NCBI GenBank assembly: GCA_015523565.1
Contig: WAKA01000020.1
Location: forward strand, 1 to 32,836
Reading direction: 5' to 3'
DNA length: 32,836 nucleotides
Source: Candidatus Heimdallarchaeota archaeon
GTDB taxonomy: Archaea > Asgardarchaeota > Heimdallarchaeia > Heimdallarchaeales > Kariarchaeaceae
Below, one piece after another: positions 3,100 to 21,859 of this stretch. Within the stretch, counting starts at the first letter, position 1, and every line of letters starts with the position of its first letter. Below the pieces are notes generated by a model that was given only the letters and a program-made list of their open reading frames with translations, was not told where the DNA came from and did no database searches. A program made the translations under genes and the position numbers.

Positions 3100-3159
3100 A
3101 CAAAAAAAGTTCATCCCCTCTCAAAAACTATAATAAGCATATGTATTTAATTGTAATCT

Positions 3160-4326
3160 GTGACCTCTGCCACTTCGTCGGATCTTATTCCACTGTTGAC
3201 CAATTTACAGGAAATTACCTATGATATAGATTTTGAACAGGTTCATAAATGGAAAAGGGAGCATCCCGGCAAAAAAGCAATTGCCACTTTTCCAGTCTAT
3301 GTACCCCATGAATTGATCTATGCATATGGGCATTTGCCAGTGAATATTTACGGAGGAGGAGAGGAGATTTCAATCAGTCATGCAGATGCAATACTTGGAT
3401 CATTCATCTGTAGCATATCAAAATCTACAACGGAACTGCTATTAAGCCACCAACCTTTCAGAGATGCATTTGATGGATTTGTTTTTCCATTCATCTGTGA
3501 TGTGGCAAGAAACCTTTCAGGAATATTCGGAAGGCGGATCTCCCAACCGGTTTATATGCTCCATCTTGCACAGAATGTCCAGTCAGAGCATTCAATCCCT
3601 TACTTGAAAAATGAATTTATGCGGATGGTCAGCACCCTTTTTCCGGATGAGCAATTGGATCTGGAAAAGCTAAGGGATGCAATTTCCAAATACAATGAAA
3701 ATCGTGCATTATACAAGAAAATCTATGAATTAAGATCGGAAACACCATGGAAGGTTCCACTTGATGATTTGTACATGACAATAAGGGTTGGTTCAAATCT
3801 GGATGTAGTTAAGCATAATGAATTATTGAAATCAAAGCTTTCTGAATATGAAAAAAATGAAAGACCAAAGAAAGATGCCATAAGGGTTGTTGTAACTGGA
3901 AATTTCTGTGAACAGCCCCCTTTGGACATTATCAGACTGATTGAACAGGTAGGATGCTATGTGATCGACGATGACTTCATGATTGGCAGAAGGTTTTATC
4001 AAACACCTGTTTCTGAGGAAGGAGACCCCATCGAAGCATTGGCAAGACACTATTTGCATGAAGGGGCCAAAACGGCAACTCGTTTCCATGAGGGGGAGAA
4101 AGGAGAAGTCATTTTGGAACGGGTCAAGAATGCAAATGCGGAGGGAGTGATTTTCCTGACTGCCAAATTCTGTGAGCCTGCATTGGATGATTTGGTACTG
4201 CAACAGCAGGCATTGCAAGAAAACGGCATTCCCAGTGTGCATATAGAATTTGAGGAACGGGGATCTGGATACGAGAACATTCGGCTTTCATTGGAAACAT
4301 TTGTAGAATCGTTGTTGTTTGACTAA
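3160..4326 (+). CDS. bcrC: Benzoyl-CoA reductase / 2-hydroxyglutaryl-CoA dehydratase family subunit (BcrC-like)
   Basis: 388 aa, GTG start; HgdB/BcrBC-type features ('FPVYVPHELIYAYGHLPVNIYGGG', 'DGFVFPFICDVARNLSGIF', 'VTGNFCEQPPLDIIRLIEQVGCYVIDDDFMIGRRF', 'VIFLTAKFCEPALDD'). Confidence 0.85.
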   Translation: MTSATSSDLIPLLTNLQEITYDIDFEQVHKWKREHPGKKAIATFPVYVPHELIYAYGHLPVNIYGGGEEISISHADAILGSFICSISKSTTELLLSHQPFRDAFDGFVFPFICDVARNLSGIFGRRISQPVYMLHLAQNVQSEHSIPYLKNEFMRMVSTLFPDEQLDLEKLRDAISKYNENRALYKKIYELRSETPWKVPLDDLYMTIRVGSNLDVVKHNELLKSKLSEYEKNERPKKDAIRVVVTGNFCEQPPLDIIRLIEQVGCYVIDDDFMIGRRFYQTPVSEEGDPIEALARHYLHEGAKTATRFHEGEKGEVILERVKNANAEGVIFLTAKFCEPALDDLVLQQQALQENGIPSVHIEFEERGSGYENIRLSLETFVESLLFD

Positions 4327-4474
4327 TCCAACTGATTCTTACTGCATGTTAAAAGAAGCAAAAAAAGGGTGCAGACATCGGAAATTGGGGAAATGGAAAA
4401 AAGTTATTTAGGTATAGTAAATTCCGATACACGATACACTAAGAAGTTAAATAGTACGATTTCAAGAATAAGCT

Positions 4475-5725
4475 ATGGAAAATATAGTTGCTGTAAAAGA
4501 GGAAGATCTCCAATATGCCGGTGCAGCAAGAAAGATGCAAAGGCAGTTGGTCAGGGATTTTTATAGGCAAGATGTCACGAAACCAGTTGTCTATCTGTTT
4601 GTAGGTGGAAATCCAGCAGAATTATTGCGGGCATTGGGCTTTCAAGTTTACATGCCAGAAATTACCGCTTTGACGATGGCAATCCGTCATCAGTCATTGC
4701 AATATATTCTGAAAGCAGAATCAATTGGCTATGGATTGGATGTATGTGGTTATGTAAAGACAGACATCGGGCTGACGCATTTGTCAGGGGGCGAAACAGA
4801 TATGGGGAAAATCCCCCGACCTGACTTGCTGGTATGCAATTATTCTGGATGCTCAGTCTATGCGAAATGGTGGGAGGCATTGGCGGAATTCTACAAGGTT
4901 CCCCTGATAATGCTGGACATTCCCTATCATAGGTTCAATGATCCGCAAAAGGAAGATTTGGAGTACATAATCGGACAACTTCGGGAAATGGTTGAGAAAA
5001 TCGAGAAGCTTTTTGATCTAACTTTTGACATGAACAGGTTAAAGGATGTGCTTGCATATTCAAGGAAAGCAGAAGATGGGTGGGGGAGGAGTTTTGAAAT
5101 GGCAAAGCATGTGCCTTCTCCAATAGATGCCTACTTTGAATCAATATTCTACATGTTTCCGATAAATGCCTTGAGGGGAACAAAAGAAGCTGCGGAATTC
5201 TATGACCTCTTGAACAGGGAACTTGATGAGAGGGTTAAGCATGGCATTGGTCCCGTAGAAAACGAGGAATTCCGAACCGTCATTGAGGGAGTCCCACCAT
5301 ATCCCGGTTACAGGTCATTCTGGAATATGTTCAAGAAATGGAATGCCGTGTCTGTTGCGGCGACATACCCAAAGGTTGGGGGAATGTTTGATATCCCTGA
5401 GTTAAGGCATGATCCTGCCAAACCTTGGGAAAGTATTGCAAGATACAGTATTTTCAGTTACTGCAATCTTTCTTGGGATTTCCGAAGAGAAACAATCAAG
5501 CGTTATTTGGAGGATTTCAAGGCGGATGCATTGGTGATACATGGCATCAAAAGCTGTAGAAGCTTTACCGCAGGACAGGGAGATCTTAGGGATTATGTGA
5601 TCAATGAATTGGGATATCCCGCCTTATATGTGGAATCAGACCATCAAGACCCACGGTATTGGGCAGAGGCCCAGATTTTGAACAGGGTGGATGCCTTCTT
5701 TGAGGCATTGAGAATGAAGAGGTGA
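4475..5725 (+). CDS. bcrB: Benzoyl-CoA reductase / 2-hydroxyglutaryl-CoA dehydratase family subunit (BcrB-like)
   Basis: 416 aa; 'ALGFQVYMPEITALTMA', 'GYGLDVCGYVKTDIG', 'PDLLVCNYSGCSVYAKWWEALAEFYKVPLIMLDIP', 'SCRSFTAGQGDLRDYV...LGYPALYVESDHQDPRYW'. Confidence 0.85.
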   Translation: MENIVAVKEEDLQYAGAARKMQRQLVRDFYRQDVTKPVVYLFVGGNPAELLRALGFQVYMPEITALTMAIRHQSLQYILKAESIGYGLDVCGYVKTDIGLTHLSGGETDMGKIPRPDLLVCNYSGCSVYAKWWEALAEFYKVPLIMLDIPYHRFNDPQKEDLEYIIGQLREMVEKIEKLFDLTFDMNRLKDVLAYSRKAEDGWGRSFEMAKHVPSPIDAYFESIFYMFPINALRGTKEAAEFYDLLNRELDERVKHGIGPVENEEFRTVIEGVPPYPGYRSFWNMFKKWNAVSVAATYPKVGGMFDIPELRHDPAKPWESIARYSIFSYCNLSWDFRRETIKRYLEDFKADALVIHGIKSCRSFTAGQGDLRDYVINELGYPALYVESDHQDPRYWAEAQILNRVDAFFEALRMKR

Positions 5726-5731
5726 AAAGAA

Positions 5732-6559
5732 ATGCAAGAGAAATATGTAGCAGGCGTGGATGTGGGAAGCACCACAGCAAAGGCAATTATATTGGACATG
5801 GACAGGAACATAGTTGGCAAGTCATTGCAAAATGTTTCTCCAAAGGTTGCAGAAGATGCAGAGACTGCATTTCTCAAGGCATGCCAAGATGCAGGCATAG
5901 ATCGAGAAAAGGTTGTATTGATCACAGGGACAGGTTATGGAAGATTAAAAGTCAGGTTCGGTCAACTCATCGTAACAGAAATCTCCTGCCATGCAAAAGG
6001 GGCACAATTTATTTTTCCGAAGACAAGGCTGACATTGGATATAGGGGGGCAAGATACAAAAGCAATCAGGCTTGGAGAAAATGGAGAGATAATCGATTTT
6101 AGTATGAACGACAAATGTTCTGCAGGAACTGGACGGTTCTTGGACGTTTGTGCAGATGCTTTAGGATTTTCTGTTTCAGATCTTGGCCCAATTTCTGAAA
6201 AATCCAGAAGACCAGTCAAAATTACAAGCACATGCACTGTTTTTGCCGAAACAGAGGTTTCCAACCAATTGGCAAGGGGCAGAAAACCAGAAGACATTGT
6301 CAATGGTCTCCATTACTCAATTGCGGAAAGATCCATTTCATTGATGCGAAGAGTCGGGATTGTTGATGAAATCACATTTACCGGCGGGGTGTCTCGAAAT
6401 ACTGGAATGGTGCGAGCCCTTGAAGACAAGCTTGGGAGAAAGATCAATGTTTCGCCGTTATCCCAATGGTTTGGAGCAATCGGGGCAGCATTGTTTGCAT
6501 TGGAAGAACTTGAGAAAGGGAGTGATCCAAAATTCATGCCAATGGAGGTGAAACAATGA
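5732..6559 (+). CDS. bcrD: Benzoyl-CoA reductase ATPase subunit (BcrA/BcrD/BadF/HgdC ASKHA family)
   Basis: 'GVDVGSTTAKAIILD', 'TGYGR', 'LTLDIGGQDTKAI', [4Fe-4S] ligand motifs 'NDKCSAGTGRFLD' and 'CTVFAETEVSNQLARG', 'TGGVSRNTGMVRALE'. A versus D assignment is tentative. Confidence 0.85.
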   Translation: MQEKYVAGVDVGSTTAKAIILDMDRNIVGKSLQNVSPKVAEDAETAFLKACQDAGIDREKVVLITGTGYGRLKVRFGQLIVTEISCHAKGAQFIFPKTRLTLDIGGQDTKAIRLGENGEIIDFSMNDKCSAGTGRFLDVCADALGFSVSDLGPISEKSRRPVKITSTCTVFAETEVSNQLARGRKPEDIVNGLHYSIAERSISLMRRVGIVDEITFTGGVSRNTGMVRALEDKLGRKINVSPLSQWFGAIGAALFALEELEKGSDPKFMPMEVKQ

Positions 6560-7350
6560 TTACAGCAGGCATTGACATAGGCACAGGATCTACAAAAGGA
6601 GTGTTGCTTGAAGACAATGAAAAAATAATTGCAAGAGCCATAAAACCCACAAAAGGTTCCCCCGGAAAGATGGCCACTGAAATTTTCAATGAATTGCTGG
6701 AAACGTCCAAACTTGACAAAGGCGAGGTTGATTATATCGCATCAACGGGATATGGTCGTTATATGATGGAAGAACGCCAAATCCAGATCAGCGATTTGAC
6801 AACCACGGGGAGAGGTGCAAAATTCATCTATAGGGACAAGAATCCCAGCCTTATTCTGGATATAGGGACACAATCCTCTAGAGCCATAAGAGTAGATGAA
6901 CGAGGCAAGATCATCCAGTTCAAGATGAATGAAAGATGCGCCGCGGGAAGTGGAAGATTTATTGAGAGATGTTCACGTTACCTAGTTGTTCCAATGGAAA
7001 AGATTTCTGAGACAGCCATGAAAAGCACAGATCCACAAAAGATTTCCAGTGTCTGTGCAGTGCTTTCAGAAACAGAGATAATTAACCATGTCTCACAAGG
7101 GATTCCCGTTGAGGATATCTTGATGGGGGTTTTCATGAGCATCGCAGACAGGGCAGGAACTCTTTTGAAAAGGGTAAAGCTTGATGCCCCTGTCTTTCTT
7201 GCTGGAGGGCTGGTCCATATGCCTGCAATGAAAAAGGCATTGGACGAGGTACTTGACCAAGAGGTCATATCTGTGCCAGAGGCACATTTTTCAGCGGCAA
7301 TTGGTGCCGCAAGGCTTGGTTATCAAAGACTTCAAAAAATCAAGAAATAG
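6556..7350 (+). CDS. bcrA: Benzoyl-CoA reductase second ATPase subunit (BcrA/BcrD/BadF/HgdC family)
   Basis: 'GIDIGTGSTKGVLLED', 'STGYGRYMM', 'LILDIGTQSSRAI', 'NERCAAGSGRFIE', 'CAVLSETEIINHVSQG', 'LAGGLVHMPAMKKALD'. Start overlaps the upstream stop by 4 bp (ATGA). Confidence 0.85.
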   Translation: MITAGIDIGTGSTKGVLLEDNEKIIARAIKPTKGSPGKMATEIFNELLETSKLDKGEVDYIASTGYGRYMMEERQIQISDLTTTGRGAKFIYRDKNPSLILDIGTQSSRAIRVDERGKIIQFKMNERCAAGSGRFIERCSRYLVVPMEKISETAMKSTDPQKISSVCAVLSETEIINHVSQGIPVEDILMGVFMSIADRAGTLLKRVKLDAPVFLAGGLVHMPAMKKALDEVLDQEVISVPEAHFSAAIGAARLGYQRLQKIKK

Positions 7351-7371
7351 AGAAAAGGGGACAAAAACAAC

Positions 7372-8349
7372 ATGAGTGAATACGGATTCAAAGAAAAATT
7401 CAAACCAAAAGATGCTGAGGAATACGATTTCAAGGAAATCATATATGAAAAAGACAGGGACAAGTTTGTCGCCAAGGTCACAATCAATCGCCCACATGTA
7501 TATAATGCATATTCCACAGAAACATTGAGAGAAATGTCACAGGCATTCCTTGATGCCATGTGGGATGATGGGGTCGCCGTTGTGGTGCTTACAGGGGCAG
7601 GTGACAAGGCGTTTTGTACAGGAGGTGATGTGAAAGAATACCAGAGCATCTTCACACAAAAACCAAGAGATTATTACAAATGGATGTCACTATTTGTCGA
7701 GGCACATGACAGGTTCAGGAACATTGGTAAGCCAACAATCGCGAGAATCAACGGAATCGTTGCGGGTGGAGGAAATGAATGGAATATGGCATGCGATCTG
7801 GCTATTGCGGCAGAACATGCCACAATCCGACAAGTAGGGACAAGAGTCGGGTCTGTTGCGGCAGGAGGAGCCACCCAATGGCTCCCCATAATTGTAGGGG
7901 ACAGAAGGGCAAGAGAGATACTGTTTCTCAATGAGCCAATCCCTGCAAGAAAAGCGATGGAATGGGGTCTTGTCAACCAAGTTGTACCTTATGAGAAATT
8001 GGATGAGGCAGTGGATGCAATGGTCGAGAAATTGGTCGAAAAGTTTCCAGAATGCAGCAGATATACAAAAGAACAGGTAAACTTCTGGAAAAATTTTGCT
8101 TGGTATCAAACCATAAATCATGCAAAGGAATGGTTAACGCTTCATTATGCAAACTGGGAACCTTACGAGGGGATGACTGCATTCGTTGAAAAAAGACCGC
8201 CCAATTATAGGATGATTCGGGAAATTGCAAGAGACGGTGGATCCTCTGAGCTTATGTGGGGACCACCATCAAAGACATGCTCTGCATGCGGTGCAAAAGG
8301 ACTCCCCAAGAATTTCAAGCATTGTGGCGTTTGTGGAAAAGAACTATAG
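7372..8349 (+). CDS. Crotonase-superfamily ring hydrolase, 6-oxocyclohex-1-ene-1-carbonyl-CoA hydrolase (Oah/BamA)-like, with C-terminal zinc ribbon
   Basis: 'VYNAYSTETL', 'GAGDKAFCTGGDVKEY', 'KPTIARINGIVAGGGNEWNMACDLAIA', 'VGSVAAGGATQWLPIIVG' resemble Oah 'YNSYTTEM', 'GAGDKAFCTGGNTKEY', 'HGSAAIGGATDFLPLMIG'. C-terminal CSACGAKGLPKNFKHCGVCGKEL (CxxC-x11-CxxC). Confidence 0.7.
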   Translation: MSEYGFKEKFKPKDAEEYDFKEIIYEKDRDKFVAKVTINRPHVYNAYSTETLREMSQAFLDAMWDDGVAVVVLTGAGDKAFCTGGDVKEYQSIFTQKPRDYYKWMSLFVEAHDRFRNIGKPTIARINGIVAGGGNEWNMACDLAIAAEHATIRQVGTRVGSVAAGGATQWLPIIVGDRRAREILFLNEPIPARKAMEWGLVNQVVPYEKLDEAVDAMVEKLVEKFPECSRYTKEQVNFWKNFAWYQTINHAKEWLTLHYANWEPYEGMTAFVEKRPPNYRMIREIARDGGSSELMWGPPSKTCSACGAKGLPKNFKHCGVCGKEL

Positions 8350-8361
8350 GTGTAAACAACA

Positions 8362-9942
8362 ATGGCAACCATACTCACCATTGACCAAGTTACAAAAGAC
8401 CTCATCCCAGATGGATCATTCATTGCGATAGGAGGGGTTCATTCACATAATGCTCCAATGGCACTGATCAGGCAGATCATAAGGGAGGGGGTAAAAGACC
8501 TTACAGTATTGGGATCCATCTCAACAGGATTGCCGATTGATTTGCTTGTGGCAACTAAATCAGTCAAAAAAATTCTGGCACCATACGTAGGCATGGAAAT
8601 GTGGGGACTTGCACCCAATTACAGAAAAGCTGTTGAACAGGGAGAGGTGGTGGCTCCTGATGTATGCGAGGCATTCCCAATTTATGGATTAAGAGCCTCG
8701 ATAAATGGCATTCCCTTCCATCCATTCCCGCCCAATGTGCATAAGTCATCAGACATCCCTTCACAATCAGAATATTACAAGAAAGTAACTGACCCGTTTT
8801 CTGGTGAAGAAACCTATGCGATTGCCGCCATACATCCTGACATTGCATTGATCCATGTACAGAATGCAACGGTTTCAGGAGATTGTGAGCATCTTGGATC
8901 TGTTGTATTGGATCGGCTTATGGCAGAAGCATCCAAACTTACGATTGTGACCTGTGACAATTTGGTGAACACAATCGATACAAGAAATGTGACCATTCCA
9001 GGATTTTTGGTCGATTATATCGTCCCCCTCAAGGGTGCGGCTTTCCCAACCTCATCACATGGAATGTATGTCTATGATGAGACCACAATCAAAGGATACT
9101 TGAAAGCTTCAAAAAATCAAGAGGAACTACAAAGGTGGATAGATGGATTCAAAAATTCAAATGAGGAAGAGTACTTGTCCAAGCAGACCCTGACCACGGA
9201 ATTGAGAGGAAAACCAAATACAGGAGAATATACAATTTCAGAGCTTATTGCAACGGTATTTAGTAGGGACATCAAGGATGGAGAATTGGGGATCTGTGGA
9301 GCTGTTGCTGAAATTCCCATGGCCGCCATGAGGTTGGCTGAAAGATTGCATGCCCCCAATTTAAGGTGGATTTCAGGAGGATCTGGTTATATCAATCCAA
9401 GAGGAGTGCTATATCCATCCTCGACGGATTTTGAAATGTCAAGGAATGCCAATGCAAGACTTTCCATGAATGAGGTAATCGCCATGGAAATGACAAAAAT
9501 TGACTTTTTCTTTGCTGGAGGATTACAGATTGATGCAAGAGGCAGTACAAATTTGGGAGGAATACCGTCGGAAAGCGGTTGGAAACTGCGTGGACCAGGA
9601 AGTGTAGGCCTTCCATTCCTGCCTCAAGCTGGAAGAGTGTATCTTTATACCCTTTCACATAACAAGAGGTCACTTGTTGAAAAGGTGGCATATGTTTCAG
9701 GACCAGGAGCCATTGGAGAGGGCGGATCAAAACCGTCACTATTGGTTACAAACCTTTGTGTCTTTAGATGGAAGGGCAGATGGACATTGGAATCCTTGCA
9801 TCCCGGAGTAACCCTTGAAGATGTGGTTGAGAACACAGGATTTGAGTTTGATATTCCAGAAACCGTACAAACAACAAAACCACCAACACAAGAAGAATTA
9901 ACTATTCTTCGAGAAATAGATAAGTTAGGTGTCCTGAAATGA
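8362..9942 (+). CDS. Fused two-domain class I CoA-transferase-fold protein (GctA-GctB / IpdA-IpdB-like), possible CoA-thioester ring hydrolase
   Basis: Residues about 1-270 look like GctA/IpdA ('LAPNYRKAVEQG', 'GLRASINGIPFHPF', 'PDIALIHVQNATVSGDCEH'). Residues about 288-526 look like GctB/IpdB ('FFFAGGLQIDARGSTNL', 'RSLVEKVAYVSGPG', 'LVTNLCVFRW', 'SLHPGVTLEDVVENTGFEFD'). Confidence 0.75.
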   Translation: MATILTIDQVTKDLIPDGSFIAIGGVHSHNAPMALIRQIIREGVKDLTVLGSISTGLPIDLLVATKSVKKILAPYVGMEMWGLAPNYRKAVEQGEVVAPDVCEAFPIYGLRASINGIPFHPFPPNVHKSSDIPSQSEYYKKVTDPFSGEETYAIAAIHPDIALIHVQNATVSGDCEHLGSVVLDRLMAEASKLTIVTCDNLVNTIDTRNVTIPGFLVDYIVPLKGAAFPTSSHGMYVYDETTIKGYLKASKNQEELQRWIDGFKNSNEEEYLSKQTLTTELRGKPNTGEYTISELIATVFSRDIKDGELGICGAVAEIPMAAMRLAERLHAPNLRWISGGSGYINPRGVLYPSSTDFEMSRNANARLSMNEVIAMEMTKIDFFFAGGLQIDARGSTNLGGIPSESGWKLRGPGSVGLPFLPQAGRVYLYTLSHNKRSLVEKVAYVSGPGAIGEGGSKPSLLVTNLCVFRWKGRWTLESLHPGVTLEDVVENTGFEFDIPETVQTTKPPTQEELTILREIDKLGVLK

Positions 9943-10628
9943 ATGTATTGGTCATTGGTGCATTGGGGGGAATTGGTAAGGCAACTGTAAAAAGACTCCA
10001 GCAGTCAGGATATGAAGTAATCTCAGCAGATATACCTGTAATTGAGGATAAAAATTATATTGCAGTTGATGTTGCTGATTACAACTCAGTTAATCGGCTG
10101 TTTGGGGAATTGGAACATAAGGGGATCAAAATATCAGGGATTGTGAATTTGGCAGGGATTACAAGAGACAGGACATTGTTGAAAATGAACCATGAGGAAT
10201 GGGAAAACGTAATTTCAGTCAACCTTACAGGAAGTTTCAATGTACTTAAGCGGGGGGCGGAACACATGAAGATGCATGGAAAAGGTTCCATTGTCCTGAT
10301 TGGATCCACTGCCGCGTTGAATGGCAATTTTGGACAGACAAACTACAGTGCCTCAAAAGCAGGGATACAAGGTCTTGTGAGATCCGCGAGTAGGGAACTT
10401 GCACGGAATGGCATACGTGTCAATTGTGTCATTCCAGGGTTAATAGAAACGCCAATGTCCGCAAAGATACCAAAGGAAAGATGGGAAACCATTCTTAAGA
10501 TAATTCCGCTTGGAAGGGCAGGCAAACCTGAAGAGGTTGCAAATCTCATCAATTTTTTAATTTCCGACGAATCCTCATATATTACTGGTTCCTCGATGCT
10601 TGTCGACGGCGGATTAAGAATGTCCTGA
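9939..10628 (+). CDS. Short-chain dehydrogenase/reductase (FabG/3-hydroxyacyl-CoA dehydrogenase-like)
   Basis: 'VIGALGGIGKATVKRL', 'NLAGITRD', 'GSIVLIGSTAALNGNFGQTNYSASKAGIQGL' (YxxxK), 'VNCVIPGLIETPM', 'SSYITGSSMLVDGG'. 4-bp overlap with the upstream gene. Confidence 0.85.
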   Translation: MNVLVIGALGGIGKATVKRLQQSGYEVISADIPVIEDKNYIAVDVADYNSVNRLFGELEHKGIKISGIVNLAGITRDRTLLKMNHEEWENVISVNLTGSFNVLKRGAEHMKMHGKGSIVLIGSTAALNGNFGQTNYSASKAGIQGLVRSASRELARNGIRVNCVIPGLIETPMSAKIPKERWETILKIIPLGRAGKPEEVANLINFLISDESSYITGSSMLVDGGLRMS

Positions 10629-12488
10629 TCATTCATAAAAATCATTGACACCGTTTTTTCGAGCGTAGTGAATGACAGGTAATAGAAGGGTAAAAGGATA
10701 AAACATTTCAAGAGTTTTGTAGAGGTAGCCATCGACAGTTTCCCTAATTTGAAAGAATATTATGAAATCATCGGGATTCAAGCTTGAAGAATTGAAGACA
10801 CTTAAGCCACTGAAAATCAGGAGAACCTGGGTGGTTGAAAAGAATGTGCGATATTGGACAGGAATGGAATAGAATTGATGAACGTCATTCCATCCTGCGT
10901 AGATTAATTTCTCCTCCCCATTTATTGAAAGAATGACGTCAAGACGCCAATTCACGGAAAGCGGTTGATCTAAGGGCAAGACATTTTCGGGGTCACTGAC
11001 ATATTTTACATCGACAATGGAGATTTTGTCATCGTTGAATTGGATGACATCACCAACTTTCCCGTCAACATCTGTAACTTTTGTGGAGTAATGGGAAGCA
11101 AGCATTCCAAGAATAAGAAATAAAAGGAAAAGATGAGGCATGATTCTCATTGTTTTTCGAAAGGTGATTTTTTTGGGGATCGGCGGTACATTCCTCCCAT
11201 GGAACAAAAATCCCAAGAAGACAAGAAAAATGAAATAATAATAACCAAGTTTTGGAGGAGAGACCATAAGTGGGATTCCCACAAAAATGACGAGAACAGA
11301 GAACAAAACCAAGGAATTTTGTGAGAAAGAAAGAGCCAATGTATCTTTCAGGTCACGAAACAATGTCAAGGACAAGGGGAACAATAACAAGGTCAGAACA
11401 ATGAAGTGGTAAAACCCTTTGTTTGGGCTTAACTTTTTCCCAATTACAAAACCATACACTGTTAATGAAAATATGCCTGTTGAGAGAATGATAATGATCA
11501 AAAAGTTGGCCATGAGCCAAACTGAGGCACCCCTATCCTTAAAGGAAAGATCAATGTGATATGTTTTTGGCATATCCAAAAATATTATTGGGATTATTGA
11601 AAAGAGAAAGAGAGTAAGGAATATCCACATTTGAGATGAAGTTGCATAGCTATGCGGATCACGGAGTATTCCGCTTCTGATTATGGCGGTAGAAAGCAGG
11701 ATGGCAGGAAAGGTGAATTGCATTGATTTCAATTGGGTTTGCCATGAATAGCTGGCAAAATGGAATGGCAATATGGAACACATGAATATAAATAGAGTGA
11801 GAATTTCAACAGGGTCCCAAGTCCAATGTCCGCCCCAAAGGACTTCGTAAGACCAAAATGCACCAGATACGATGGCAGACGCGAAAAGAAAGACCATAAA
11901 GGCATTCATGATTTTCAGATTCTTGAATTGGGAATAGGAAACCTCCCTGCCAAAAATCGAATATGAATATAAGAAAAATGCAATAGAATAACCAAAAAAA
12001 GACAATGGCGGATGAATGTCAATATAGAAAGAACGAAGGCTTGGCGGAATGCCCAATCCCATCTCGTATCCAAGAGTCGAATACTCAAAAGGATTCTGAA
12101 AATAAAGCCCAAAAGCGATCATTAAGACAAAGGAAGAGAACAAAAGTTGAGATTTCCGAATTTGTGCCCAAAGGGATTGGATGAATTGAAATGAGACAAG
12201 GATGGTGAACCAAAGGAAAAGACTGCCCGTTGCATTTGACCAGCTTGCAAAAAGTCTTTCAGAACTATCCATTCCCCTTGAAAGAGTATGGGCAACAATT
12301 GCGTATCGAGTGTCTGAATGGATGAACAGGAAAATGAATCCAACAAACAATGACCATGAAAGGAGAGTCAAAAAACCAGATAGCAGAACTGAGAGCCTTT
12401 GATTTATTTTAAGCAACAGGCCAACGATATACAATGCCTGGAATGACAGGATTAAATAGAAAAAAACCATGAGATGCAAAGTTCTCAC
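10629..12488 (-). CDS. ccmF: Cytochrome c maturation heme lyase CcmF-like protein
   Basis: 619 aa polytopic; WWD-type motif 'FWSYEVLWGGHWTWDPVEILTL', 'DIHPPLSFFGYS', 'FASWSNATGSLFLW'. GTG start. Confidence 0.85.
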   Translation of the reverse strand: MRTLHLMVFFYLILSFQALYIVGLLLKINQRLSVLLSGFLTLLSWSLFVGFIFLFIHSDTRYAIVAHTLSRGMDSSERLFASWSNATGSLFLWFTILVSFQFIQSLWAQIRKSQLLFSSFVLMIAFGLYFQNPFEYSTLGYEMGLGIPPSLRSFYIDIHPPLSFFGYSIAFFLYSYSIFGREVSYSQFKNLKIMNAFMVFLFASAIVSGAFWSYEVLWGGHWTWDPVEILTLFIFMCSILPFHFASYSWQTQLKSMQFTFPAILLSTAIIRSGILRDPHSYATSSQMWIFLTLFLFSIIPIIFLDMPKTYHIDLSFKDRGASVWLMANFLIIIILSTGIFSLTVYGFVIGKKLSPNKGFYHFIVLTLLLFPLSLTLFRDLKDTLALSFSQNSLVLFSVLVIFVGIPLMVSPPKLGYYYFIFLVFLGFLFHGRNVPPIPKKITFRKTMRIMPHLFLLFLILGMLASHYSTKVTDVDGKVGDVIQFNDDKISIVDVKYVSDPENVLPLDQPLSVNWRLDVILSINGEEKLIYAGWNDVHQFYSIPVQYRTFFSTTQVLLIFSGLSVFNSSSLNPDDFIIFFQIRETVDGYLYKTLEMFYPFTLLLPVIHYARKNGVNDFYE

Positions 12489-13982: not shown

Positions 13983-16784
13983 TCAATCAGATTTCTCTTC
14001 CCAAGTCATTTCTGCAATACTCTGGTAGTTAAATGGTGAAGAATCCCGAGGCATAGATTGTGGCAGGAAATGACCAGGTTCACTTTCTTTTTTCTCCAAT
14101 TTATTCAGGAGATGATGACGAGCCCTTAGAATGTCGTCAGCCTGTACAACAGCAATGTCATTGATTTCAAGCCATTCATACAGGGCAGTTATGGCATCTA
14201 GTTCAGTCTGATCACCAAAAAACATTACAATTGCGTCAGGATGCACCCCATTTTCAACAAGAACGGTTGCCAAGATTTTCGGGACTTCACCAGGTTCCCT
14301 GCCTCTCCTATTCCAATCCTCCTTAAGGAAATACCGGTCATAATGTCCAGCCACGATTTCCGCGGCATGCTTGATGGTGCTGTCAGGTCTATCACCAGGC
14401 ATTCCAAAGACGATTGCCTTACGTCCGATTCCATGCTGATCCTTGTGAAATCCTTCAACAAGCATTATCTGAGATTTTAGGGCGTCTGGGTTGTGGCCAT
14501 AGTCGATAATGACTCTGGCACCCTTTACAAATTCAATATTCATCCTTCCAGGGGTTAGTGAATAATTTGTGGTGAATGAAGAGAGTCCAGCCCGAATATC
14601 CTCTATCGAGACAAAAGGTATTGTTGCAGCCACAACAAACATGGCATTGACAATGTTGAAGACTGCATGACCGTTATGGCAGGCAGGGATTGACTTCACA
14701 TGCAAAATAGAGGTCTGGGACTTATTCTGGATCAATTGAATCATGCCGTTTGGTGTAATTGTAACGGCGTCACCACCAGATGCAACATGATCCAGTAATT
14801 TTGGGTTTTTATAGTTCAAGGAGACCAAGACGGGCTTGCCACGAATTCTGTCGATCTGATCCATGACAAGGGGATCGTCGGCATTTATGACACCATATCC
14901 GACATCTTTTTTGACTTGATCCAAAACAACCCCCTTGACTTCTGCGAGATCCTCCAATGTTTCAACACCCCCCAATCCCAAGTGATCCTCAGAAATATTC
15001 AGCAAGCAACCGACATCACAATAGTCCCATCCCAACCCCTCCCTGAGAATGCCACCACGAGCAGTTTCCAATACTGCAAAATCAACAGTCGGATCTTTCA
15101 GCACTGCCTTTGCACTCCATGGACCCGTACAATCCCCGACGTATTGCAATTCACCATCAATGTAAATCCCGTCTGTGGTGGTAAGCCCTACTTTTCGACC
15201 AGAAAGTTTCAGCACATGTGCAATCCACCTTGACACTGTTGTTTTGCCATTTGTGCCAGTTACCGCGATCAGGGGGATGCGACCGTCATTCCCATCAGGG
15301 AACAGCATGTCTACGATCGGTTTTGCCACATTTCTGTTGGTTCCTTCAGTGGGCTCCAAATGCATTCTCAAACCAGGTGCCGCGTTTACCTCTATGATAA
15401 CACCCCGTTGCGAAAGGATTGGAATAGAAATGTCTTCTGCGATGATATCAACACCTGCGATATCCAATCCGATTGTTTTGACGGCTCGTTCAGCCAATCG
15501 GATGTTGTCATAGTGAATGATATCGGATACATCAACTGCAGTCCCACCAGTTGAAAGATTGGCAGTTGCCTTTAGTTGCACAAAACGACCTTTTTCAGGC
15601 ACATCATCAAGGGTCAATCCTTGACTTTCCAGCAGGTCAAGGGAAGATTGATCCAACGTAATCCTTGTAAGTACCTTTTCATGACCAATTCCACGTCTAG
15701 GGTCTTCATTCACGATCCTCACCAACTCATCAACAGTGTGGATGCCATCACCCACAACATGGGCAGGAATTCGTTGAGCCGCAGCAATAAATTGCCCATT
15801 CACAACCAAGACACGATAATCATTGCCTTGGACATACTGTTCCACAATTACATAGCGAGAATACTCTTTAGCCTTTTCAAACCCTTTCCTTAGATCATTC
15901 TCGTCTTCTATGTTAAGTGTCACCCCCCTCCCATGAGAAACATCAGAGGGTTTGGTCACCACAGGATAGCCAATCCGGTTCGCCTCTTCCAATGCCCCCT
16001 CAAAAGTTGTGACCTCTGCACCGCGTGGAACCGGAATGCCGACATCATATAGCATTTGAAGGGTCAGTTCCTTCTCTTGAGCGATTTCAGTTGCAATATA
16101 GGATGTCAAGCTACTAGTGGATGCCCAAATGCGTTTTTGTTTGTATCCCCATCCAAATTGCACCAAGCTCCATTTCTTCTTAAGCCGAATCGAGGGGATT
16201 CCCCGGTTTTCAGCCTCCCGTACAATTGCACCAGTGGTTGGTCCATAGGCATATTCTTCCGCAATACGGATAACTTTTGCCAAGGAAAGTCCCCAATCAA
16301 ATTCAGGGTATCGGGTTGGATCAATGCAATAATTTACAACCTGTTGAGCCAAATCAGTGGAAGCAAGTGCAGTCTCCTCATTCTTGTATTCGTAAACCAC
16401 GTTATACACACTTTCTTTACCTGTTCTGCCCAATCGATTGCGGATCTGCCTTGTTTTGCCGAATGAAACGGCAATTCCAGCAAGATTCTGTATCTCTATG
16501 GCAACATGCTCAAAAATATGCCCCATCCATGTCCCCTCATCCTCTGTGAGCCTACGGACAAAACCTCCCTTGACCCCTAAACTACAGGTATGTTCTGCCA
16601 ATGTGGGGACAAGATCTAAAAGCCGTTCATTGAAGCCATCTAGTTTCATGGAAGGATAGTCTTCCAAATCACCAATGTCAACGACCACATGCATTGCTTT
16701 TCTGTAATGGTAGATATTGGGACCGCGATAGACCCGTTTCGACACAATCTCCAAATAAAGGTCGGGTTGCATTGTATTCATCAA
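13983..16784 (-). CDS. cphA: Cyanophycin synthetase
   Basis: 933 aa; N-terminal 'GGFVRRLTEDEGTWMGHIFEHVAIEIQNLAGIAVSFGKTR', ATP-grasp 'GYPVVTKPSDVSHGRGVTL', Mur-ligase 'VTGTNGKTTVSRWIAHVL', 'LETARGGILREGLGWDYCDVGCLLNISEDHLG', 'IDYGHNPDAL'. Confidence 0.95.
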   Translation of the reverse strand: MMNTMQPDLYLEIVSKRVYRGPNIYHYRKAMHVVVDIGDLEDYPSMKLDGFNERLLDLVPTLAEHTCSLGVKGGFVRRLTEDEGTWMGHIFEHVAIEIQNLAGIAVSFGKTRQIRNRLGRTGKESVYNVVYEYKNEETALASTDLAQQVVNYCIDPTRYPEFDWGLSLAKVIRIAEEYAYGPTTGAIVREAENRGIPSIRLKKKWSLVQFGWGYKQKRIWASTSSLTSYIATEIAQEKELTLQMLYDVGIPVPRGAEVTTFEGALEEANRIGYPVVTKPSDVSHGRGVTLNIEDENDLRKGFEKAKEYSRYVIVEQYVQGNDYRVLVVNGQFIAAAQRIPAHVVGDGIHTVDELVRIVNEDPRRGIGHEKVLTRITLDQSSLDLLESQGLTLDDVPEKGRFVQLKATANLSTGGTAVDVSDIIHYDNIRLAERAVKTIGLDIAGVDIIAEDISIPILSQRGVIIEVNAAPGLRMHLEPTEGTNRNVAKPIVDMLFPDGNDGRIPLIAVTGTNGKTTVSRWIAHVLKLSGRKVGLTTTDGIYIDGELQYVGDCTGPWSAKAVLKDPTVDFAVLETARGGILREGLGWDYCDVGCLLNISEDHLGLGGVETLEDLAEVKGVVLDQVKKDVGYGVINADDPLVMDQIDRIRGKPVLVSLNYKNPKLLDHVASGGDAVTITPNGMIQLIQNKSQTSILHVKSIPACHNGHAVFNIVNAMFVVAATIPFVSIEDIRAGLSSFTTNYSLTPGRMNIEFVKGARVIIDYGHNPDALKSQIMLVEGFHKDQHGIGRKAIVFGMPGDRPDSTIKHAAEIVAGHYDRYFLKEDWNRRGREPGEVPKILATVLVENGVHPDAIVMFFGDQTELDAITALYEWLEINDIAVVQADDILRARHHLLNKLEKKESEPGHFLPQSMPRDSSPFNYQSIAEMTWEEKSD

Positions 16785-17117: not shown

Positions 17118-18038
17118 TTATCTTATCCACATGGAAATTGCCACACCCATATACATCCAGAGATATGCTATTGCCATAAACATTGAAGCGAACTTGAAAA
17201 GTTTGAAAGTTGTTATATGATTGGGGTTTTGGAAGTTTTGCACTGAAAGTCGGATCAATACAATGCCGAACAGGATCAGCGGAAGTTGAGCCAACATATG
17301 GAGCCTTAAGGCATATCCTGTGGCAATGAGAAGAAAACCATCCAAGAATGATGCAATGGTCACAACATATCTTGTCTCCCTGATACCTGCGACAACAGGC
17401 CACATTGGCACCCCTGCATTTCGATAACCCTCCAGATTTTCAGGGAGGGTTGCAAGAGTCAAAATGTGGAGAGGGATCCATAAAAGGATGAAAAGGAGAA
17501 ACAAGACTGCCACCAAGTCGATTTTTCCGATGACCGCAGTCCTTCCCGCCATTGCAGGCAATCCGCCAGCGATTCCTCCAAATACAATAGACCATTTAGT
17601 CCTTCTTTTTAGCCACAATGAGTAGACAACAACATCAAAAAACAATCCTAGGGCAATAATGACTGCGGTCAGCATATTCAGGAAGTATGCAGCTCCAAAT
17701 ACACCACTAACGGAAAAGATGAAACCATGGTTCCGAACAGTGCTTGCACTTATCTTGCCAGAGGGTAAAGGGCGGTTCTGTGTCCTAGGCATTATTGCAT
17801 CGATATCCCTGTCGATGTACATGTTCAGAAGAGTGGATCCAGACACGGCAAAAAACATAGATATGGTGAGCAGGATCAAGTCTTTCAAAACAGGATAAGG
17901 ATGAGCGCTGATAAGATATGCAAAAACGGTTGTGTAGATAAGTAAAGAGGTTTGCTTTCCCTTTATCAATTCGCCATACATAGAAAAGGGAATAAAATTT
18001 GGATGCCGGTCTGCAGTTGTTAAACCATGTTCACTCAT
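17118..18038 (-). CDS. ctaB: Protoheme IX farnesyltransferase (heme O synthase)
   Basis: 'STLLNMYIDRDIDAIMPRTQNRPLPSGKIS', 'YSLWLKRRTKWSIVFGGIAGGLPAMAGR', 'LWIPLHILTLA...AGVPMWPVVAGIRETR'. ATG at 18038; the ORF track begins at an upstream TTG (18044). Confidence 0.88.
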   Translation of the reverse strand: MSEHGLTTADRHPNFIPFSMYGELIKGKQTSLLIYTTVFAYLISAHPYPVLKDLILLTISMFFAVSGSTLLNMYIDRDIDAIMPRTQNRPLPSGKISASTVRNHGFIFSVSGVFGAAYFLNMLTAVIIALGLFFDVVVYSLWLKRRTKWSIVFGGIAGGLPAMAGRTAVIGKIDLVAVLFLLFILLWIPLHILTLATLPENLEGYRNAGVPMWPVVAGIRETRYVVTIASFLDGFLLIATGYALRLHMLAQLPLILFGIVLIRLSVQNFQNPNHITTFKLFKFASMFMAIAYLWMYMGVAISMWIR

Positions 18039-19470
18039 TTCCAACTACTCCTGTTTCAAATTCATCTGTAAGGAAATGCTTGATAAGATAATATATGCCA
18101 AAGATACCTGTAGCCATGAACATGAACATGACTCCAATATCAATGAGCAAAAACAAGGTCAACCCTTTGTCATCTGGGGAACGCAACATGTAAAGCGTTG
18201 CAAAACCGAAACCCAGGATTGACCCTATCAGGGATGACCAACCAATGAAATCGTGTATTTTTCCTTTGATATCCAAGTATTTGACAGCAAGCATCAGAAC
18301 CATAATTGCACAGATTGTAGAAATGACATGCCAATGTCCAGTATTGAAAGTCCGTTCAATTTCAGTGTATTCATCCGTACGGAATTTTTCAAGGTGTATT
18401 GCAACGTATACGCCAGGAAAAGTGCTGGTCACATTGACCCAAATAAGTTGGAAATACAAGGTGAAATCAACAGGATCCTTGAAAACAGCCATGATTTTGC
18501 TCAACAAAGGACTGGAATCATAAGAAACCCCAAGTTTCCTACGGGAAATGTTGACAATGCCATAGATGGCAGTAATCATCCCTACAAGAAGAAGAAACAT
18601 TGCCCCTACATTTATAACGACGTGGGCCTTTTCCCATGGGGTAATCACCAACCATGCGCCTATACTTATGATAACAACCCCAATATTGTAGAGTATATGG
18701 CACACTTTCAGCAATTTCCCCTTCATTCCAGAGTATTTCAGGGTAAGCAAAAGAACTGCCGCGGCCAAAAGGGCAACCATGATATGCAGATGTGATACCA
18801 CCATTTCCTTGAGAGAATATCCAACATTACCACCAGGCGCCCTGACAACATCTTCAGCAAGAACGACTTCGAAATTGGTTCCAATGTTTGACCCCACCCA
18901 TGCACCAATAATAGAAGATATCAATATCGCAAGTATTGTCAAAGACATGGAAAAGTATTCCAAATTATATTGCCTCCAATATGGTGCATCCTTTTTTTTT
19001 GTGGGAAAGGTCGTGCTCGGCCAGATCCCGATAAGCAAGAGTATTGCCCCATAAAAACTTAGGGAAAGCCCAAAAATAAAGACCCCATGAGGCACTTGGG
19101 AATCAATTGGAGAATACCCATAAACCATTCCAAAAAAGCCAGTGAGCAAAGCCCCAATTGTGATTGCCCATTTTGCCTGTATTTCTAAAGTGCCGCGGAT
19201 TTCATACCAATCAAGAACAAAATAAGAGACAGCCGCAAGAAATGGGACTGCCAATGAATGATAAAGCATGATGATCCGTCCAGCCCTTGTTCTAGGCGAA
19301 TTGTCAAGATCAACAGGAATCAACGGTTTGCCGAATATTTCGACTACAGGTTTTGAAAAAGTACTCAAAAACACTATAATTGCAAGCTCAAAAAGGATAA
19401 TCAAAGCGATTAGTCCCCTATAACTAGTAAAAAACTGCTTTATTTTCCCAATGAAAGTTATTGTAATCAC
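18031..19470 (-). CDS. Divergent heme-copper-oxidase-superfamily-like 12-TM protein with three internal repeats
   Basis: About 480 aa, roughly 12 TM; helix motifs YHSLA (TM2-like), SHLHIM (TM6-like), GHWHV (TM10-like), adjacent to heme O synthase. The canonical HPEVY and HH CuB motifs are not seen. The ORF track starts at 19515; a GTG near 19470, just after the upstream stop, is a plausible start. Confidence 0.6.
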   Translation of the reverse strand: MITITFIGKIKQFFTSYRGLIALIILFELAIIVFLSTFSKPVVEIFGKPLIPVDLDNSPRTRAGRIIMLYHSLAVPFLAAVSYFVLDWYEIRGTLEIQAKWAITIGALLTGFFGMVYGYSPIDSQVPHGVFIFGLSLSFYGAILLLIGIWPSTTFPTKKKDAPYWRQYNLEYFSMSLTILAILISSIIGAWVGSNIGTNFEVVLAEDVVRAPGGNVGYSLKEMVVSHLHIMVALLAAAVLLLTLKYSGMKGKLLKVCHILYNIGVVIISIGAWLVITPWEKAHVVINVGAMFLLLVGMITAIYGIVNISRRKLGVSYDSSPLLSKIMAVFKDPVDFTLYFQLIWVNVTSTFPGVYVAIHLEKFRTDEYTEIERTFNTGHWHVISTICAIMVLMLAVKYLDIKGKIHDFIGWSSLIGSILGFGFATLYMLRSPDDKGLTLFLLIDIGVMFMFMATGIFGIYYLIKHFLTDEFETGVVGNE

Positions 19471-19480
19471 CTCTTGCCTC

Positions 19481-20137
19481 TTATTTGACCAGCATGTCCG
19501 AAATGAAAGGCACATTTATTCTCCATTTTTCAGGGAATACAATTCCAAGAGTGAAGAAAGCACCTACAATGAGCAATAGCGGGGGAAGCACAAGAAAGAT
19601 CTGTCCTTCAGTCAAGATGGGACTTCCGATGGCTACAAAAGCCAAAAGTGCACCTCCAAAACTAATCAGGACCCCACCTATGCTCATAAAGTATGCGTTG
19701 GCTTCTTTTGAAACAATGGGAAGAAGGATAATCAAAATGCCTGAGGGGATGTGCATAGCCATGATAAGTCCAGAGGTCGAGGTGTCACCAGCCAGTCTTA
19801 CCCATGCAGTGATAACCATCATTATAAGTTCATACAGCAAGAACACCCACCCATATAATGGGTTGTCTTCAAACACCGCAAAAAGAAGCCCAACAGCCAT
19901 GCCGATAGGGATTAATGCGGCAACGACCGGCACAAGCTCTGTTTTAAGGATATCGAAGTCAAAAAGGATTATCAGTACACCCGAAACAAAGAGCACAATG
20001 TATGAAATGCCCCAAAACAGGTGATACTTGTTCTTCGAGGCAACATATTCCTTTAAAAGGAAAATGCCCACATAGACGGCTACAATGCCCGTCAGCAACA
20101 GGAATATGATTGAAACTAAGTTGTCCAACATGGTCAT
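19481..20137 (-). CDS. Polytopic membrane protein of unknown function, upstream of the HCO-like gene
   Basis: 218 aa, about 7 hydrophobic segments, same operon orientation; TATA-like element about 25 nt upstream of the ATG. Confidence 0.7.
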   Translation of the reverse strand: MTMLDNLVSIIFLLLTGIVAVYVGIFLLKEYVASKNKYHLFWGISYIVLFVSGVLIILFDFDILKTELVPVVAALIPIGMAVGLLFAVFEDNPLYGWVFLLYELIMMVITAWVRLAGDTSTSGLIMAMHIPSGILIILLPIVSKEANAYFMSIGGVLISFGGALLAFVAIGSPILTEGQIFLVLPPLLLIVGAFFTLGIVFPEKWRINVPFISDMLVK

Positions 20138-20157: not shown

Positions 20158-20166
20158 TATTTATAG
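20158..20166 (-). promoter_or_regulatory. Candidate TATA box for the 19481-20137 gene
   Basis: Minus strand ..CCTATAAATATTT.. about 25 nt upstream of the ATG at 20137. Confidence 0.45.
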
Positions 20167-20171
20167 GTTAG

Positions 20172-20187
20172 GTGAGCAATTGCTCAC
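20172..20187. promoter_or_regulatory. Perfect 16-bp palindrome GTGAGCAATTGCTCAC immediately upstream of the BRE/TATA region
   Basis: Self-complementary by direct reading; lies next to the TATA-like element. Confidence 0.6.
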
Positions 20188-20356: not shown

Positions 20357-20791
20357 TCAATCCTTTTTGATTTCCAAATCAACAAAATCAAGGCAATTAT
20401 GTATGCAACTTTTGTTTTTGCAATTTTCAAAGCTTGTATTCCCATAATTGATGGCCCAAGTCTTCATGGCCTCCAACACATCCTTGAGAGCAATACCCCG
20501 GTCTGTCAATGCATAACCAACCCGTTCATTATCAAGTCGGATACGTGCAACCAAATCATTTTTTTCAAGTTCGTTCAGCTTGTCCTTGAGCACCCTTGAA
20601 GAAATTTCAGTTGAATAGTTCCCAGAGAGCTTTCGTTTAAGATCTGTGAATGTTAGGTACGGTTTCGCCAGTAATTCAGCAAAAATAAAAACATTCCATT
20701 TTTTCCCAAGCACCTCAAGTGTATGGACAACACTGCATTTAAAGTCCACGGCACCCATCAAGCACAGATTTAAACTATACTTTTTAAACAT
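20357..20791 (-). CDS. HxlR-family winged-helix transcriptional regulator
   Basis: 'CSVVHTLEVLGKKWNVFIFAELL', 'FTDLKRKL...ISSRVLKDKLNELEKNDLVARI...VGYALTDRGIALKDVLEAMKTWAINYG'. Confidence 0.85.
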   Translation of the reverse strand: MFKKYSLNLCLMGAVDFKCSVVHTLEVLGKKWNVFIFAELLAKPYLTFTDLKRKLSGNYSTEISSRVLKDKLNELEKNDLVARIRLDNERVGYALTDRGIALKDVLEAMKTWAINYGNTSFENCKNKSCIHNCLDFVDLEIKKD

Positions 20792-20971: not shown

Positions 20972-21859
20972 ATGGTCGGGCACACATCATATTTGGCCAT
21001 AGGAGGGGCAATGAGACTCCATGAAAAAAACCCCTTGGTAAGAACCTTCATAGACGGGGCTGGCGGAAAGGAAAGCGTGATCACAATATTGCCTACTGCG
21101 TCAGATTTTGCTGAGGAAGTGGGATCACTTTATTATAAGCTGTTCTGCAAGCTTTCAGATGATGTGGAGTATTTCATCATTGACCATAGGCATCAGGCAG
21201 AAGACCCCAAACTGTTGGAAAGAATAGACAGGACAACAGGGCTGTTTTTTACTGGAGGAAACCAACTTCGCATAACCAGCCTGCTGGGCGGATCAAAACT
21301 CCAGTACAGGATAAACAGTGCGAGAAAGAGAGGGGTGTTTATCGCAGGAACCTCTGCCGGCGCATCCGCCATGAGCTCCACAATGATCGCAGGAGGCAAA
21401 TCAGATGCCATGTTCAAGGGGAGTGTGGAATTGAGTCCGGGATTGGGTTTCGTTGACAACGCAGTCATTGATTCACACTTCATCAAACGGGGCAGGATAA
21501 CCCGGTTGCTGAATGTAGTCAGCCTCAATCCAGGAATATTGGGATTGGGACTGTCTGAAGACACAGGGATCTTGATGAAAGAGGGGAGCTCCATGATGCG
21601 TGTGATAGGGAGCAGGCAAATTGTCATAGTAGATGGCAGAAGTATATCCCATACGAACATAGCGTCAATTGAGGACCATAAGCCCTTTAGTGTGACAGAT
21701 GTCAGAGTCCATGTCCTCAGCCACGACTATGGCTACGATCTGCAAACCCATGAACTGTTCATTCCAGACATCATTCCCGAACTACCGGATTTCAAGGAAG
21801 AGGAAATAGCAGACCTCCCGTATTTTCCGCTTAAGAAACTTGAAAATAGAGATTGGTAA
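20972..21859 (+). CDS. cphB: Cyanophycinase (peptidase family S51)
   Basis: 'LAIGGAMRLHEKN', 'TGGNQLRITSLLGGS', nucleophile region 'GVFIAGTSAGASAMSSTMIAGG', 'LSPGLGFVDNAVIDSHFIKRGRITRLL', 'LGLGLSEDTGILMKEG'. Confidence 0.9.
   Translation: MVGHTSYLAIGGAMRLHEKNPLVRTFIDGAGGKESVITILPTASDFAEEVGSLYYKLFCKLSDDVEYFIIDHRHQAEDPKLLERIDRTTGLFFTGGNQLRITSLLGGSKLQYRINSARKRGVFIAGTSAGASAMSSTMIAGGKSDAMFKGSVELSPGLGFVDNAVIDSHFIKRGRITRLLNVVSLNPGILGLGLSEDTGILMKEGSSMMRVIGSRQIVIVDGRSISHTNIASIEDHKPFSVTDVRVHVLSHDYGYDLQTHELFIPDIIPELPDFKEEEIADLPYFPLKKLENRDW

What the first reader, a model, noticed from the sequence alone, without database searches (positions are those of the whole stretch)
18031..19470. Divergent heme-copper-oxidase-like protein with its three-fold repeat visible in the primary sequence
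Seen directly: three segments align by eye: (1) YHSLAVPFLAAVSYFVLDWYEIRGTLEIQAKWAITIGALL, (2) SHLHIMVALLAAAVLLLTLKYSGMKGKLLKVCHILYNIGVVIISIGAWL, (3) GHWHVISTICAIMVLMLAVKYLDIKGKIHDFIGWSSLIGSILGFGFATL. Each is followed by a similar TM helix (PHGVFIFGLSLSFYGAILLLIGIW / KAHVVINVGAMFLLLVGMITAIYGI / DKGLTLFLLIDIGVMFMFMATGIFGI). Approximate nt spans are 19293-19021, 18813-18547 and 18354-18082. Established knowledge: HCO subunit I has 12 TMs in pseudo-three-fold symmetry, with heme ligands in TM2 and TM10. Here the HPEVY and HH CuB motifs are absent, while TM6 carries a duplicated HxH. Inference: a CuB-less or alternative-site relative of HCOs that uses heme O or A (ctaB is the next gene). It may inform HCO origins or be a new quinol/NO/electron-transfer enzyme.
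Basis: partly seen in the sequence, partly recalled or inferred. Interest (0 to 1): 0.75.

Follow-up and report, generated by a model that had tools for sequence, protein, structure and literature searches.

The report
Unclassified heme-copper-oxidase-like membrane family
An Asgard archaeon carries an undescribed membrane protein shaped like the oxygen-reducing core of respiration but with its metal-binding histidines rearranged; relatives occur across Asgard archaea and in Chloroflexota, almost always with the enzyme that makes heme O, even in species with no ordinary oxidase, so it is probably a new branch of heme-based oxygen- or nitric-oxide-handling proteins.

Summary
Window 18031-19515(-) encodes a 12-TM protein with no Pfam, NCBIfam or PDB sequence match. 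The three-fold repeat is real: HMM-HMM probability 96.7% (repeats 2-3), 90.4% (1-3), weak but in register for 1-2. A confident AlphaFold2 model (pLDDT 91.5, pTM 0.92) finds heme-copper oxidase/NO reductase subunit I as its only significant solved relatives. It is a conserved family in Asgard archaea, Anaerolineae and Bacteroidales, with seven near-invariant histidines: TM2, TM4, TM6 HxH, TM8, TM10 HxH. The HPEVY and HH CuB motifs are absent, but 'CuB-less' is not shown: H244 and H298 align near CuB ligands and were lost together in a paralogue. In Asgard genomes without canonical oxidases, 31 of 33 carriers have heme O synthase against 4 of 183 non-carriers, mostly next to the gene. So it very probably uses heme O itself. 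Best guess: a terminal reductase or scavenger of O2 or NO with a rearranged active site; substrate unknown. I do not file it as a heme-copper oxidase: two defining CuB motifs were tested and not met.

The parts
18031..19515 (-). 12-TM HCO-like protein (HCOL), 494 aa from ATG; likely real start GTG at 19470 (479 aa). Residue numbers in this report follow the 494-aa ORF.
19006..19425 (-). Repeat 1 (TM1-4): H86 (nt 19258-19260, TM2), H143 (nt 19087-19089, start of TM4)
18508..18978 (-). Repeat 2 (TM5-8): H242/H244 (nt 18784-18792, TM6 HLH), H298 (nt 18622-18624, start of TM8)
18058..18492 (-). Repeat 3 (TM9-12): H394/H396 (nt 18328-18336, TM10 HWH), aligned with the HFH heme ligands of HCO TM10
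19481..20137 (-). Partner: 218-aa membrane protein, 7 predicted helices, one invariant His (H129); recurrent operon neighbour; no known family
17118..18044 (-). Heme O synthase CtaB, overlapping the HCOL gene by 14 nt; recurrent downstream gene
20357..20791 (-). HxlR-family (RrpB-like redox) transcription regulator; recurrent in Asgard loci
20172..20187 (.). Perfect 16-bp palindrome GTGAGCAATTGCTCAC just upstream of a TATA-like sequence (about 20158-20166) ahead of the operon; possible operator (inference)

Best explanation
A previously unclassified family with the heme-copper-oxidase subunit I fold, loaded with heme O made by its operon neighbour CtaB, that acts in the membrane as a terminal reductase or scavenger for a small oxidant (O2 or NO). 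Shown: the family, seven near-invariant histidines, internal triplication, HCO-like predicted fold, operon with ctaB, ctaB tracking the family where canonical oxidases are absent. Inferred: H86 (TM2) and H396 (TM10) hold a low-spin heme; H394 holds the active-site heme; H244 (TM6) and H298 (TM8) lie opposite it, as a rearranged metal site or as a distal ligand pair; H143 and H242 form a further site in the third pore. Also inferred: electrons come through the 7-TM partner or, in Lokiarchaea, from a GlcD/GlcF-like flavin and iron-sulfur dehydrogenase encoded in the same cluster.
For: Fold: of 350,542 PDB chains, all six hits at E<=1e-3 and essentially all credible hits are HCO/NOR subunit I (A, ba3, cbb3, cNOR, qNOR; TM-scores about 0.4-0.6), from a model of pLDDT 91.5. 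Profile alignment to 37 HCO superfamily members: probability 85.7%, E 5.5e-6, collinear over 362 columns, score 57.2 against at most 51.6 in 60 block-shuffled controls and 20.1 reversed; the TM2 and TM10 heme-ligand positions match. Conservation: seven histidines in every covering row of 55 members except one paralogue, a very divergent member included. Heme O: HCO-less Asgard carriers 31/33 with ctaB against 4/183 non-carriers (p 9e-31; genus level 9/11 against 1/43, p 1e-7); 24 of 24 bacterial carriers have ctaB, 10 of them with no PF00115 gene. Site pairing: two orthologous Loki paralogues lost exactly H244 (to R) and H298 (to N) and kept the other five. Redox context: HxlR/RrpB-like or CRP/FNR-type regulators, GlcD/GlcF-like genes.
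Against: No conserved Tyr or Glu at the HCO/NOR positions after the TM6 histidine. No CuA- or cytochrome c-bearing subunit seen next door. The register of H86 and of the TM6 histidines is ambiguous by two residues between alignments. The profile score exceeds shuffled controls only modestly. No substrate evidence of any kind.
Confidence: 0.55

Rival explanations
1. Specifically a nitric oxide reductase or NO-scavenging protein: an HCO-fold enzyme that, like NOR and NnrS, lacks the oxidase tyrosine and protects anaerobes from NO.
For: No conserved Tyr after the TM6 histidine; CRP/FNR-type regulators next to the Chloroflexota copies; Foldseek also finds cNOR and qNOR; a hemerythrin/DUF438/PAS gene lies by a second ctaB-partner cluster of one carrier.
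Against: Known NORs, to my knowledge, use heme b only, so a near-obligate ctaB is odd; the NOR Glu ligands are absent; no similarity to NnrS (probability 0.1%).
Confidence: 0.25
2. An electron-transfer cytochrome (two or three bis-histidine hemes) without catalysis, passing electrons between a dehydrogenase or quinol and another acceptor.
For: Histidines on TM2, 4, 6, 8 and 10 could make bis-His pairs; flavin and iron-sulfur dehydrogenase genes lie beside it in Lokiarchaea.
Against: Heme O, to my knowledge, is known only from terminal oxidases; the fold is that of oxidases; HCO-less carriers show no other obvious acceptor beside it.
Confidence: 0.2
3. A heme O-processing enzyme or chaperone, analogous to heme A synthase (CtaA), which also carries His in TM2/4/6/8 and is linked to ctaB.
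For: Similar layout of histidines (CtaA layout per PMC12808453) and ctaB adjacency.
Against: No profile similarity to Asgard CtaA (probability 0.3% or less); HCO-less carriers have no canonical heme A enzyme to supply and lack CtaA; top folds are HCO, not CtaA.
Confidence: 0.05

Closest known systems
Heme-copper oxidase / NO reductase subunit I superfamily (PF00115)
   Same: 12-TM pseudo-three-fold fold by AF2 and Foldseek; single His in TM2 and HxH in TM10; heme O synthase in the operon
   Different: No HPxxY or H-x3-E in TM6, no HH in TM7; HxH in TM6 and conserved His at the starts of TM4 and TM8 instead; no PF00115 match; no CuA or cytochrome c subunit seen next door; a 7-TM partner instead
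NnrS (PF05940), membrane heme protein of the NO response (function from my own knowledge)
   Same: Another non-canonical membrane family with HxH motifs; here HCO and NnrS-like profiles align with probability 82%
   Different: No detectable similarity to the new family (0.1%)
Heme A synthase CtaA/Cox15 (PF02628)
   Same: 4-TM units with His on the second and fourth helices; genetic link to ctaB (PMC12808453)
   Different: 8 (or 4) TM; E-x-x-H-R motif absent here; no profile similarity; absent from HCO-less carriers tested

Membership tests
Heme-copper oxidase / NOR subunit I | 12-TM HCO fold | tested here: met
   AF2 pLDDT 91.5; only significant PDB matches are HCO/NOR subunit I
Heme-copper oxidase / NOR subunit I | TM2 His and TM10 HxH heme ligands | tested here: met
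   H86 and H394/H396 invariant and aligned with the HCO ligands
Heme-copper oxidase / NOR subunit I | TM6 His of HPxxY (or H-x3-E in NOR) | tested here: not met
   HLHIM in its place
Heme-copper oxidase / NOR subunit I | TM7 HH pair of the CuB/FeB site | tested here: not met
   No HH; a single invariant His (H298) at the start of TM8 aligns with its first His
Heme-copper oxidase / NOR subunit I | Match to PF00115 | tested here: not met
Heme-copper oxidase / NOR subunit I | High-spin heme plus CuB/FeB, O2 or NO reduction | not testable with these tools
   needs purified protein or cofactor placement
NnrS | Match to the NnrS family | tested here: not met
   No PF05940 hit; profile-profile probability 0.1%
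Heme A synthase CtaA | PF02628 match, E-x-x-H-R motif in TM2 | tested here: not met
   No Pfam hit, TM2 reads LYHSLA, profile-profile probability 0.3% or less

The most novel reading that the evidence does not exclude
An HCO-fold enzyme with cofactors in all three pores of the pseudo-three-fold structure: low-spin heme (H86/H396), active-site heme opposite a moved ligand set (H394 with H244/H298), and a third heme or metal (H143/H242), using heme O and reducing O2 or NO; a branch of the superfamily outside the oxidases and NO reductases described so far.
Probability: 0.3. Interest if true: 0.9.

Novelty: new variant of a known kind. Interest (0 to 1): 0.74.

Why it matters
Every described HCO superfamily enzyme I know of keeps the TM6 and TM7 histidines of the binuclear site. 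A widespread family that keeps the fold and the TM2/TM10 heme ligands but redistributes the rest would show how the site can be rewired, with its internal triplication still readable in the sequence. It would also give many Asgard lineages without canonical oxidases a candidate way to deal with O2 or NO, which bears on the oxygen relations of the archaeal relatives of eukaryotes.

Tried and rejected
First genome-contig scan with the single protein found nothing; the alignment A1 worked. PDB sequence searches for the family and the partner found only chance hits or none. The partner's fold search gave no significant match, only 7-TM look-alikes. NnrS and CtaA were tested as closer homes and rejected. 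A desulfoferrodoxin reading of the Lokiarchaeal secreted neighbour was not confirmed: one of 12 members, below the cut-off, and no PDB match. Subset HCO profiles (A-type, NOR and others alone) give weak scores; only the pooled profile is convincing. A smaller comparison (A2 against A3) was near its best block-shuffled control (42.4 against 40.4). No paper describing the family was found in the held library, which does not cover preprints or most subscription journals.

Full report
What is there. Window 18031-19515(-) is a 494-aa ORF, probably starting at GTG 19470. Upstream lie a 218-aa membrane protein (19481-20137) and an HxlR-type regulator (20357-20791); downstream, overlapping by 14 nt, is a heme O synthase above its NCBIfam cut-off. 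Neither the ORF nor the 218-aa protein matches any Pfam or NCBIfam model, and the ORF has no sequence relative in the PDB. For 35 diverse relatives only scattered weak hits to unrelated models appear.

The family. Homologues were found in 43 of 232 Asgard genomes (one of these, G158, is a spurious short match and G016 a 64-aa fragment), in named Heimdallarchaeota, Hodarchaeota, Thorarchaeota, Anaerolineae and Bacteroidales MAGs, and in 15 of 301 genomes sampled from the phylum of an Anaerolineales carrier, two of them marginal. In a tree of 52 members the bacterial copies form one supported group that, with midpoint rooting, nests among Asgard copies, so one inter-domain transfer is likely; its direction depends on the root.

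Conserved residues. Across 55 members, H86, H143, H242, H244, H298, H394 and H396 are conserved in every row that covers them except one paralogue; R80, Y85, Y134, R379 and E387 are also invariant where covered in that set and E221 nearly so (a second copy in G138 added later departs at R80). The AF2 helices place the histidines on TM2 (H86), start of TM4 (H143), TM6 (H242, H244), start of TM8 (H298) and TM10 (H394, H396).

The repeat. Profiles of TM1-4, TM5-8 and TM9-12 match each other (R2-R3 96.7%, R1-R3 90.4%, R1-R2 9.6% but in register).

Relation to heme-copper oxidases. The AF2 model (35 sequences, no templates, pLDDT 91.5, pTM 0.92) finds HCO subunit I of A, ba3 and cbb3 types and cNOR/qNOR as its only credible PDB relatives, with E down to 1e-4 and TM-scores mostly 0.5 to 0.6. 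Profile alignment to 37 HCO superfamily sequences gathered here gives 85.7% probability, E 5.5e-6, above all 60 block-shuffled controls (best 51.6 against 57.2, or 53.8 on match columns only) and the reversed control (20.1). An earlier smaller comparison was near its controls, so sequence evidence alone is moderate. In both alignments H86 meets the TM2 heme ligand, HWH meets HFH of TM10, and H298 meets the first His of the CuB HH pair; the HPxxY His meets H244 in one alignment and H242 in the other.

A natural experiment. Two Lokiarchaeal-type genomes (G149, G138) carry a second, divergent copy in the same cluster. In both, H244 has become R and H298 N, while the other five histidines remain. 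This is what one expects if H244 and H298 belong to one site. Combined with the textbook HCO architecture (established knowledge, not tested here: pore B lined by TM6-TM10, pore C by TM10-TM2, pore A by TM2-TM6), H394, H244 and H298 fall together in the active-site pore, and H143 with H242 in the pore that is empty in oxidases. Whether H86 faces pore C (as in HCOs) or pore A (as the internal repeat register suggests) cannot be settled without coordinates.

Heme O. ctaB is the adjacent or near-adjacent downstream gene in 34 of 55 loci surveyed, several of the rest being cut by contig ends (L061 and L090 are the same locus). Over 232 Asgard genomes without regard to adjacency, among those with no canonical HCO, 31 of 33 carriers have a strong ctaB and only 4 of 183 non-carriers do (p 9e-31; genus level p 1e-7). 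The two carriers without ctaB are the fragment and the spurious match; three of the four non-carriers belong to the genus of G172, which has a divergent member. All 24 bacterial carriers have ctaB, and 10 of them lack any PF00115 gene. Heme A synthase was found in only 3 of 30 genomes tested, all of which have canonical HCOs. So heme O in the HCO-less carriers has no other visible user. MAG incompleteness weakens single cases, not the pattern; one such carrier is a single 4.9-Mb contig at 96% completeness (G055).

Neighbours. A 7-helix partner with one invariant His recurs in 27 loci. Asgard loci add an HxlR regulator, bacterial ones a CRP/FNR-type regulator and an FGE/SUMF1-domain lipoprotein. 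Lokiarchaeal clusters add GlcD-like flavin and GlcF/TfrB-like iron-sulfur proteins and a secreted, membrane-anchored protein with four invariant His and one Cys, weakly desulfoferrodoxin-like in one member.

Reading. Shown: a real family, predicted fold, conserved histidines, triplication, heme O link. Inferred: which histidines hold which heme, presence of copper or iron at H244/H298, O2 or NO as substrate, electron source. An electron-transfer cytochrome and a NOR-like enzyme remain open; a CtaA-like enzyme is unlikely.

Noticed in passing
window 2065-10628: Apparent class I (ATP-dependent) benzoyl-CoA reductase operon: two HGD-D subunits, two BcrAD ATPase subunits, zinc alcohol dehydrogenase, enoyl-CoA hydratase, CoA transferase and SDR; suggests anaerobic aromatic degradation in an Asgard archaeon.
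   Followed up: partly
window 13983-16784 and 20972-21859: Cyanophycin synthetase (1073 bits, above cut-off) and cyanophycinase flank the HCOL operon; nitrogen-storage polymer metabolism in an Asgard archaeon.
   Followed up: partly
window 10629-12488: CcmF/NrfE-like cytochrome c assembly protein beside short prenyltransferase-toroid-like ORFs.
   Followed up: no
window 20158-20187: Perfect 16-bp palindrome, unique in the window, just upstream of a TATA-like box before the partner gene; not found in the other fetched loci.
   Followed up: partly
L001, L002, L003 (own genome): The host genome also has three canonical PF00115 oxidases with HPxVY, HH and HFH motifs.
   Followed up: partly
L134, L135, L136, L143, L144, L202-L207: Lokiarchaeal-type clusters carry a secreted, membrane-anchored protein with invariant H38, H60, H68, H101 and C124 (L134 numbering), a candidate metal site of unknown kind.
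   Followed up: partly
L136 11473-12888 and L202 9615-11021: Degenerate second copy of the family in the same cluster as the intact one, lacking H244 and H298; could be a partner subunit.
   Followed up: partly
L130 (G055): A second ctaB-partner-HxlR cluster without the 12-TM gene, with a NapH-like iron-sulfur membrane protein and a DUF438/hemerythrin/PAS protein.
   Followed up: no
L175-L193: Chloroflexota NnrS-like proteins align with the HCO superfamily profile at 82% probability, suggesting NnrS is itself an HCO relative; no shuffled control was run for this comparison.
   Followed up: partly
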